Origin: Caldicellulosiruptor owensensis OL
Lineage (GTDB): Bacteria; Bacillota; Thermoanaerobacteria; Caldicellulosiruptorales; Caldicellulosiruptoraceae
Length of the DNA stretch: 64,000 nucleotides
Assembly (NCBI RefSeq): GCF_000166335.1
Contig: NC_014657.1
Coordinates: forward strand, 1,046,501 to 1,110,500
Reading direction: 5' to 3'
The notes below the pieces were generated by a model. That model saw only the letters and a list, made by a program, of their open reading frames with translations. It did no database searches and was not told the origin of the DNA. How positions within the stretch are numbered: the stretch's first letter is position 1; each line of letters opens with the position of its first letter. Shown in pieces: positions 33,704 through 56,134 of the stretch. Both the position numbers and the translations under genes were made by a program.

Positions 33704-33732
33704 TAGCACCTGAGTTTTGGTGCTGTTTTTTA
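33704..33732 (+). terminator. Terminator after the MFS gene
   Basis: AGCACC (33705-33710) pairs with GGTGCT (33719-33724), followed by GTTTTTTA. Its T-run overlaps the end of the converging SPL-like gene. Confidence 0.8.
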
Positions 33733-34740
33733 TATTGTGAAGATTTTTGACTCTGGAATAAATTGGATCAGTTTTGAAAGAAAGAATTCCATTATCTCTT
33801 TTTTTAATTCGTCAGGATAAGTGAAAATGCCATTTTCTTCTTCATAGGGAAATAGAGTAATTTCATTTACGAATACCTTTTTCATTCTCTTGAGATAATC
33901 TTTTGGTATTCTGAATACACCAATAGAAATATCTGTAATTTTGAAAGGTTCTATTTGTTTAAAGACCTGATCAAGAAATTTTAAATATATCTCTTTCCAA
34001 TTTTTAGTAAACAAGATAGGATCAAAACAAAGTCTTACTTTCCATCCATTTTCTATAGCCTTTTTAATTGTTTCAAGCCTTGCAGATAAACTGGGAGTTT
34101 TATGTTCAAACTTTTCTATAATTTCTTGGGGTGATAAGGTCCATGCTAAAATTATGTTCTCAGATGGTCTTAGACTTTGCAGAACTTCATAGTCTGCAGT
34201 TTTTGTCCTGATTTCAATTGTCAAATCTTTTCTTGAAGTTGTATATTCAATAAACATGCTGAAAAAGGGTACAATTTTTTCTAATGCCATAATGTCAGTG
34301 TCATAAGACACTGATAGGTACAGGGGATGTCTTTTTAAAACTGAATCAATCTCTTTAAAATAGTCTTCTATATTAACAAATATTACTATATTAGCAGAAG
34401 AGTACATTCCTTTCAAGAAACAATAGTCACAGCTGAAGATGCAATTAAAAATGAGACTGGTATAATAAAAGTGATTGTATCCAAAATCATGGCACAGGGG
34501 AGGACCAGGGTATAAAAATTCACCCTTCTTTTTAGCAAGTATTAGTTTTTTACTAATCTCTTGAAGTTTATAATTTTGTCTTGGTCTTGAGAAAACTTCT
34601 TTATAGTTATCTATTTCTACTATAACAGAATTAGGAAATTTATCTAAAATTATTTTTGTAATTGGATGAGAAATGATTTCTCTTTCAATGTATATATGAG
34701 AAAAATGTTTAGCTAATAAGGATTTTTTTAAGTTTTTCAA
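33730..34740 (-). CDS. SPL-like radical SAM protein
   Basis: 336 aa. A radical SAM cluster motif CIFSCDYC (CxxxCxxC) followed by FLKGMYSSANIVIFVNIEDYF is the spore-photoproduct-lyase pattern. In Bacillus SPL a downstream cysteine (Cys141 in a segment like EASCTSDIV) donates the hydrogen; the corresponding segment here reads SVSYDTDIM, with Tyr. This alignment is by eye from memory. It is probably not a true photoproduct lyase. The gene overlaps the nucleosidase-like gene upstream by 32 bases, implying a common operon. Confidence 0.75.
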   Translation of the reverse strand: MKNLKKSLLAKHFSHIYIEREIISHPITKIILDKFPNSVIVEIDNYKEVFSRPRQNYKLQEISKKLILAKKKGEFLYPGPPLCHDFGYNHFYYTSLIFNCIFSCDYCFLKGMYSSANIVIFVNIEDYFKEIDSVLKRHPLYLSVSYDTDIMALEKIVPFFSMFIEYTTSRKDLTIEIRTKTADYEVLQSLRPSENIILAWTLSPQEIIEKFEHKTPSLSARLETIKKAIENGWKVRLCFDPILFTKNWKEIYLKFLDQVFKQIEPFKITDISIGVFRIPKDYLKRMKKVFVNEITLFPYEEENGIFTYPDELKKEIMEFFLSKLIQFIPESKIFTI

Positions 34741-35548
34741 AATATTGCTTGCCCTCCTTTTTTGAGTTTACATTTATATTGAAAAACTCTGAAATATTTT
34801 CTGGCAGATTTTCATGTCTTATTATATAACTTTTTAGCAATTTCTCAAGCTGATATGTCATGGAAGTAGTAAGACGCAGACTACTTTTAAGCTTTTCAAC
34901 CACTTCTCTTATTTTTTCCTCTTCAATAATGTTAGTGCAAAATACAAGATTCATATCAACAAGAGTATTAATAAAATTTTCTATAAAAGGTATACATTGT
35001 TTTACAAGATTTGTAACTTCTTGTGGTTCTATTTTTTCATAGTCCAAAAAATCATAAACGATTTTAATACAATGGACATTGTGAGGGGCTAAAAAGCTTA
35101 GGGCTGCTTCGAAAAATCCTGCTCCCTCCATGTCAACTATATCTCCTTCAATTTCATCGGTAAAAGTATCTTTTTTAATAGGAAATGGAAAAGTTTCGAG
35201 AGAAACTTCTTTCATCTGGTGAGTTATCAGAATATCAGGGTAAAACGTCCTTTTTGAGTAATGATTAATTATCTTGTTGCACAGCAGGACATCGCCTTTT
35301 GATAGGCTTTTTTTCTTTGCACCACAAATTCCAATATTCAAGGCTATACATTTATCATTTGCTCCAAACTTTGTCAAAGCAAATGTGGTTGCTATTGCAG
35401 CTTGTAAAATTCCCTCTCCGCTCACTATGAGAAGAATTTTATCGCCAGAAAAAATTTGAAATTTTGATGGTTCGTATAATTTTTTGAGTCCGAAGTAGTC
35501 TATAAAGGCCTTTGCTTCAGGATAAAAGGCAGTAATGAGGTATATCAT
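34709..35548 (-). CDS. Nucleoside phosphorylase / MTA-SAH nucleosidase-like protein
   Basis: 279 aa. The N-terminal two thirds have the purine nucleoside phosphorylase / MTA nucleosidase fold: GEGILQAAIATTFALTKFG, ALNIGICGAKK, VDMEGAGFFEAA (with the Met-Glu that binds ribose). The last 85 residues are a helical extension with no match that I know. Its ribosome site reads AGGGGAG on the minus strand (plus 35559-35565). It overlaps the SPL-like gene, and cleavage of 5'-deoxyadenosine, the product of radical SAM chemistry, is a plausible function. Confidence 0.72.
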   Translation of the reverse strand: MIYLITAFYPEAKAFIDYFGLKKLYEPSKFQIFSGDKILLIVSGEGILQAAIATTFALTKFGANDKCIALNIGICGAKKKSLSKGDVLLCNKIINHYSKRTFYPDILITHQMKEVSLETFPFPIKKDTFTDEIEGDIVDMEGAGFFEAALSFLAPHNVHCIKIVYDFLDYEKIEPQEVTNLVKQCIPFIENFINTLVDMNLVFCTNIIEEEKIREVVEKLKSSLRLTTSMTYQLEKLLKSYIIRHENLPENISEFFNINVNSKKEGKQYFEKLKKILIS

Positions 35549-55936: not shown

Positions 55937-56134
55937 ATGGCAAGAAATAGAAAGCTTGTTCCGGAAGCAACTAAGGCTCTTGACCAATTAAAGGCAGAGG
56001 TAGCAAGCTCAATTGGTGTTCCGTTGAAACCAGGTTACAATGGTGATTTGACAGCAAAACAGGCAGGTTCAATTGGTGGTTATATGGTAAAGAGAATGAT
56101 TCAGGATTATGAAAATAGAGTAGCAGGTAAATAA
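55937..56134 (+). CDS. Small acid-soluble spore protein, alpha/beta type
   Basis: 65 aa, the normal size. LVPEATKALDQLKAEVASSIGVPLKPGYNGDLTAKQAGSIGGYMVKRMIQDYE is the alpha/beta SASP pattern; these proteins coat DNA in the spore and protect it from UV. The germination protease site (normally E-(I/F)-A-S-E) reads EVASS here. AAAGGGGGTTG (55919-55929) is the ribosome site. A strong terminator follows, so the gene is monocistronic. Confidence 0.95.
   Translation: MARNRKLVPEATKALDQLKAEVASSIGVPLKPGYNGDLTAKQAGSIGGYMVKRMIQDYENRVAGK

What the first reader, a model, noticed from the sequence alone, without database searches (positions are those of the whole stretch)
33730..35548. SPL-like radical SAM lacking the H-donor Cys, overlapping a nucleosidase-like gene
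The segment that holds Cys141 in spore photoproduct lyase reads SVSYDTDIM here, so the hydrogen donor appears to be Tyr or absent. The overlapping partner is an MTA/SAH nucleosidase-like protein, which could remove 5'-deoxyadenosine made by radical SAM catalysis. The pair may act on a different DNA or nucleoside lesion.
Basis: partly seen in the sequence, partly recalled or inferred. Interest (0 to 1): 0.6.

Follow-up and report, generated by a model that had tools for sequence, protein, structure and literature searches.

The report
Radical-SAM enzyme with its own nucleosidase
A pair of overlapping genes encodes a radical-chemistry enzyme built on the scaffold of a spore DNA-repair enzyme, but without the part thought to recognise damaged DNA, together with a dedicated enzyme that probably destroys its toxic by-product; the pair recurs, sometimes fused into one protein, in hundreds of bacterial genomes and has no described function.

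Summary
The 336-aa radical SAM protein has the spore photoproduct lyase (SPL) fold, Tyr146 stands at the Cys141 position, and the gene overlaps an MTAN-like nucleosidase (NUC) by 32 nt. It belongs to a separate monophyletic family (at least 575 loci) with Tyr there in 173/173 aligned copies. NUC is adjacent in 77 of 80 named loci, and fused to the radical SAM protein in three ORFs, one in the non-sporulating Fusobacterium vincentii.

The inference 'no H-donor Cys' is weak. Clostridial true SPLs also lack Cys141 and use another cysteine (C. acetobutylicum C74). Here Cys83 aligns with that residue in 167/173 copies.

Against spore-photoproduct repair: the SPL segment I take to be the lesion-recognition hairpin is deleted in all members; 15 of 37 carrier genomes also have a canonical SPL; some carriers have no SASP genes. 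NUC keeps the three MTAN catalytic residues, and within the class it is missing beside the gene only where a canonical MTAN exists. An SDR gene neighbours 59 of 80 named loci.

Best reading: a radical SAM enzyme of unknown, probably non-DNA substrate that consumes SAM, with a dedicated 5'-deoxyadenosine nucleosidase. Substrate and activities are untested.

The parts
33730..34740 (-). SPL-like radical SAM protein, 336 aa, TTG start
   Evidence: AF2 model, pLDDT 93.6; best PDB match Gt SPL, TM about 0.82
34420..34443 (-). CIFSCDYC: CxxxCxxC [4Fe-4S] motif (C100, C104, C107), with Y106 (Bs Y97)
   Evidence: cysteines invariant in 173/173 family rows, Y106 in 109/109
34417..34419 (-). F108 at the Bs Y99 radical-relay position (Phe in the window's genus, Tyr in most of the family)
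   Evidence: Bs Y99F uses one SAM per SP repaired (PMC3742179 Table 1)
34492..34494 (-). Cys83, aligned with the clostridial SPL donor Cys (Ca C74, Gt S76)
   Evidence: MAFFT and hhalign against clostridial SPLs; Cys in 167/173
34303..34305 (-). Tyr146 at the Bs Cys141 position
   Evidence: Tyr in 173/173 family rows
33820..33888 (-). Shortened segment in place of the SPL C-terminal YKWGRYGxGKY segment (taken as the lesion-recognition beta-hairpin)
   Evidence: R277-Y308 spans 32-34 aa in 173/173 family rows, 40 aa in 35/37 SPL rows
34709..35548 (-). NUC: MTAN-like nucleosidase with a helical C-terminal extension, 279 aa
35516..35518 (-). NUC Glu11 (E. coli MTAN Glu12)
   Evidence: 108/111
35126..35128 (-). 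NUC Glu141 (E. coli MTAN Glu174)
   Evidence: 110/111
35051..35053 (-). NUC Asp166 (E. coli MTAN Asp197)
   Evidence: 108/111
34753..34759 (-). AAGGAGG ribosome-binding site of the SPL-like gene, inside the NUC codons for KKEGK
   Evidence: spacing survey

Best explanation
The pair is a two-protein (in many genomes three-protein) radical SAM module. The SPL-like enzyme binds a [4Fe-4S] cluster and SAM, makes a 5'-deoxyadenosyl radical and abstracts a hydrogen from a substrate that is probably not spore photoproduct in DNA. The overlapping and sometimes fused nucleosidase hydrolyses it on the spot to adenine and 5-deoxyribose. Where present, the SDR acts on the sugar or on the radical product. 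Shown: fold (predicted), motifs, family separation, gene coupling, fusions, conserved nucleosidase catalytic residues, the missing segment. Inferred: the activities, SAM consumption, the role of C83/Y146. Unknown: the substrate.
For: Monophyletic family (76 rows, SH-aLRT 100) on a long branch from true SPLs. CxxxCxxC, Bs Y97, T174, K175, E207 and R216 kept, while N43, Y109, E138, R194, N198, E269 and the R299-K310 segment are changed or missing. Deletion in 173/173. NUC adjacent in 77/80 named loci plus the window, fused in L207, L130 and Fusobacterium L223. MTAN catalytic residues kept in at least 108/111; nearest folds are MTAN and futalosine hydrolase. In the class, NUC is absent beside the gene in 7 genomes, all with canonical MTAN, while 20 of 25 genomes with NUC have none (Fisher p = 2e-4, ignoring kinship). 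SDR beside 59/80 loci. 5'-dA inhibits radical SAM enzymes and is cleaved by nucleosidases (PMC8102628, PMC6079011). Canonical SPL coexists in 15 of 37 carrier genomes; SASP genes absent from 5 of 37.
Against: No activity was measured and the substrate is unknown. The NUC/MTAN complementarity may rest on a single loss in one genus, and a distant NUC copy in those genomes was not excluded. Most family members have Tyr at the Bs Y99 position, so SAM regeneration is possible outside the window's genus. Most carriers (32 of 37, and the whole class) are SASP-bearing. The missing segment was equated with the lesion-recognition hairpin from memory of the Gt SPL structure.
Confidence: 0.6

Rival explanations
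1. It is a divergent DNA photoproduct lyase (SP or another thymine adduct) that uses Cys83 as H donor, as clostridial SPL uses C74, with NUC clearing 5'-dA.
For: Whole-chain SPL fold, TM about 0.82, all other folds listed at 0.63 or less; C83 at the Ca C74 position; most carriers encode SASPs; in the window's genus it is the only SPL-family protein.
Against: C-terminal segment deleted in every member and many SPL-invariant residues changed; coexists with canonical SPL in 15/37 genomes; present in SASP-less genomes and Fusobacterium; six members lack C83.
Confidence: 0.17
2. NUC acts not on 5'-dA but on the nucleoside substrate or product of the SPL-like enzyme, and with the SDR forms a small biosynthetic or salvage pathway for a modified nucleoside or sugar.
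For: SDR linkage in 59/80 loci and in Fusobacterium; NUC has lost the MTAN stretch around Ec residues 110-165 and gained a C-terminal helical domain; the window's genome already has two MTAP-like phosphorylases that could handle 5'-dA.
Against: In the class NUC is missing only where a canonical MTAN is present; MTAN catalytic residues and fold are kept.
Confidence: 0.2

Closest known systems
Spore photoproduct lyase (SplB; Gt SPL 4FHD/4RH0, C. acetobutylicum SPL)
   Same: Radical SAM fold over the whole chain, CxxxCxxC motif, Bs Y97, T174, K175, E207, R216; Cys at the clostridial donor position
   Different: Tyr at Cys141; C-terminal segment deleted; about 20% identity; own clade; not tied to SASPs; coupled to a nucleosidase and often an SDR
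MTA/SAH nucleosidase (Pfs/MtnN, TIGR01704)
   Same: Fold (TM to target about 0.65), catalytic E12/E174/D197 equivalents
   Different: Below the family cut-off (17 against 73.8 bits); lacks the stretch around Ec 110-165; C-terminal helical extension; fused or overlapping with a radical SAM gene
5-deoxyribose salvage clusters (DrdK/DrdI/DrdA; PMC6079011)
   Different: Kinase, isomerase and aldolase that serve the whole cell; here a nucleosidase (and SDR) tied to one radical SAM enzyme

Membership tests
Spore photoproduct lyase (TIGR04070) | NCBIfam equivalog cut-off (400 bits) | tested here: not met
   83.5 bits
Spore photoproduct lyase (TIGR04070) | Radical SAM CxxxCxxC and the SPL fold | tested here: met
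Spore photoproduct lyase (TIGR04070) | H-donor cysteine at Bs C141 or at the clostridial (Ca C74) position | tested here: inconclusive
   C141 is Tyr in 173/173; Cys83 aligns with Ca C74 by MAFFT and by hhalign against clostridial SPLs, but hhalign against Bacillus SPLs shifts it by three residues; no coordinates to measure geometry
Spore photoproduct lyase (TIGR04070) | C-terminal lesion-recognition beta-hairpin | tested here: not met
   segment 32-34 aa against 40 aa; R299-G307 gapped in all family rows. That this segment is the hairpin is from memory
Spore photoproduct lyase (TIGR04070) | Repairs SP in DNA | not testable with these tools
   needs an assay
MTA/SAH nucleosidase (TIGR01704) | Family score cut-off 73.8 bits | tested here: not met
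   17 bits
MTA/SAH nucleosidase (TIGR01704) | Catalytic Glu/Glu/Asp (Ec E12, E174, D197) | tested here: met
   E11, E141, D166 in 108-110 of 111
MTA/SAH nucleosidase (TIGR01704) | Hydrolyses MTA, SAH or 5'-dA | not testable with these tools
   needs an assay; indirect support

The most novel reading that the evidence does not exclude
A new kind of radical SAM pathway: an enzyme on the SPL scaffold acting on a small nucleoside-like or other non-DNA substrate, made self-clearing by a built-in 5'-deoxyadenosine nucleosidase (fused in several lineages), with an SDR completing a three-step conversion, possibly to a 5-deoxypentose-derived product.
Probability: 0.3. Interest if true: 0.8.

Novelty: new variant of a known kind. 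Interest (0 to 1): 0.58.

Why it matters
Hundreds of clostridial and some non-sporulating genomes carry this gene, and the general SPL model (Pfam PF20903) matches it, although the evidence here argues that it is not a spore photoproduct lyase. A radical SAM enzyme with a dedicated, sometimes covalently attached, 5'-dA nucleosidase would be a direct natural test of how by-product inhibition is handled, and points to an undescribed radical reaction.

Tried and rejected
Defence system: no PADLOC match of substance. Phage or plasmid cargo: two 'phage' hits, of which the one read (MT835514, L224) is an unannotated faecal scaffold whose neighbouring genes look bacterial, and one 2.1-Mb Fusobacterium record labelled plasmid. 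Absence of any donor cysteine: rejected after the clostridial comparison. NUC C-terminal KKEGK motif as a protein function: more simply the ribosome site and TTG start of the next gene read in the NUC frame. SDR as a member in the window's own class: no ortholog at E 1e-35 in 37 genomes. Geometry of C83 in the model could not be measured because coordinates are not given. Literature searches found no description of the pair.

Full report
The observation. Both ORFs exist as described. The SPL-like protein matches SPL Pfam PF20903 (63.5 bits, cut-off 27) but not the NCBIfam SPL equivalog (83.5 against 400 bits). Its AlphaFold2 model (pLDDT 93.6) matches Gt SPL structures over the whole chain (TM 0.80-0.82), including entry 4rh0 described as 'C140A/S76C mutant'; the other folds in the list score 0.63 or less.

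Donor cysteine. Bs Cys141 is Tyr146 here, and Tyr in 173 of 173 aligned family rows (the rows include the same gene fetched by several searches; 109 rows remain at 93% identity). But in 37 other SPL rows of the phylum sample that position is Ala 18, Cys 10, Ser 9; 25 of the 37 carry Cys at Bs position 77. The literature says that C. acetobutylicum SPL uses C74, on the opposite side of the pocket (PMC5368176). The family's Cys83 aligns with that residue by MAFFT and by profile comparison with clostridial SPLs; against Bacillus SPLs the profile alignment shifts it by three residues. Cys83 is present in 167 of 173. The exceptions are L142, L154, L170 (Leptospiraceae MAG), L209 (HR37), L211 (Opitutales MAG) and L149; four of the six have Cys at position 143 instead. 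So a relocated donor is plausible, not proven.

SAM use. The window's genus has Phe at the Bs Y99 relay position; most other members have Tyr. In B. subtilis SPL, Y99F gives one 5'-dA per SP repaired (PMC3742179). This predicts stoichiometric SAM use at least in this genus.

Not a spore photoproduct lyase? Between the FR motif and the conserved C-terminal Tyr the family has 32-34 residues (173/173) against 40 in 35 of 37 SPL rows; the missing residues belong to the segment YKWGRYGxGKY. From memory, the Gt SPL structure paper (Benjdia 2012, not held) assigns lesion recognition to a beta-hairpin; I equate the two. Of 37 named carrier genomes 15 also have a canonical SPL (over 400 bits) and 5 have no SASP gene (L157, L170, L185, L209, L211; all are MAGs or bins, so mis-binning is possible). 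Fusobacterium vincentii, a named complete record of a genus known not to sporulate, is firmer. The family is one side of a branch with full support in a quick tree (long branches, midpoint root).

The partner. NUC is adjacent upstream on the same strand in 77 of the 80 named loci and in the window; L156 has a broken-looking copy, L170 none, and L207 is a fusion. Fusions: L207 (Lachnospiraceae, 643 aa) and L130 (668 aa), and Fusobacterium vincentii L223:3143-5014 (623 aa), followed by the SDR.

Link to 5'-dA. In the window's class, canonical MTAN (TIGR01704 over cut-off) is present in all 7 genomes that have the SPL-like gene without adjacent NUC, and absent from 20 of the 25 with NUC (p = 2e-4 without correction for kinship; the losses sit in one genus; one incomplete genome, G030, left out). 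5'-dA inhibits radical SAM enzymes (PMC8102628) and can be cleaved by a nucleosidase; in rats the sugar is reduced to 5-deoxyribitol (PMC6079011), a precedent for a role of the SDR. The window's genome has a PNP and two MTAP-like phosphorylases but no MTAN (names by inspection).

Third gene. A classical SDR with TGASSGIG and Asn/Ser/Tyr/Lys conserved lies beside 59 of 80 named loci, 58 of them downstream on the same strand. No ortholog was found in the window's class at E 1e-35.

Organism. SASP genes are present.

What is shown and what is not. Shown by sequence: family, fold similarity, residue conservation, the missing segment, gene order, overlap, fusions, SDR linkage. Inferred: that NUC clears 5'-dA, that SAM is consumed, that C83 or Y146 takes part in hydrogen transfer. 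Unknown: the substrate.

Noticed in passing
34738-34760 (minus strand): The conserved NUC C-terminal motif KKEGK...FE is encoded by the DNA that carries the Shine-Dalgarno (AAGGAGG) and TTG start (TTTTGAA) of the downstream gene; the motif is lost in L211 and L141, where the genes do not overlap, and in the L207 fusion, so it may be conserved for translation coupling rather than for protein function.
   Followed up: partly
L071 and L072 (genome G006): One genome of the genus carries both diverged copies of the NUC/SPL-like pair at separate places.
   Followed up: no
55946-56119: An alpha/beta-type SASP gene lies in the window, in a genome whose only SPL-family protein is this SPL-like enzyme.
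   Followed up: no
L224 (MT835514.1): An unannotated faecal scaffold filed as phage has the order SDR, truncated NUC, SPL-like, among genes that look bacterial.
   Followed up: partly
L060, L063, L070, L075 (one genus of the class): Where NUC is missing, a repetitive coiled-coil ORF ends 3-65 nt upstream of the SPL-like gene.
   Followed up: no
L033 and L013 (G014, G012): A third SPL-related subfamily with an intermediate C-terminal segment (36 aa).
   Followed up: no
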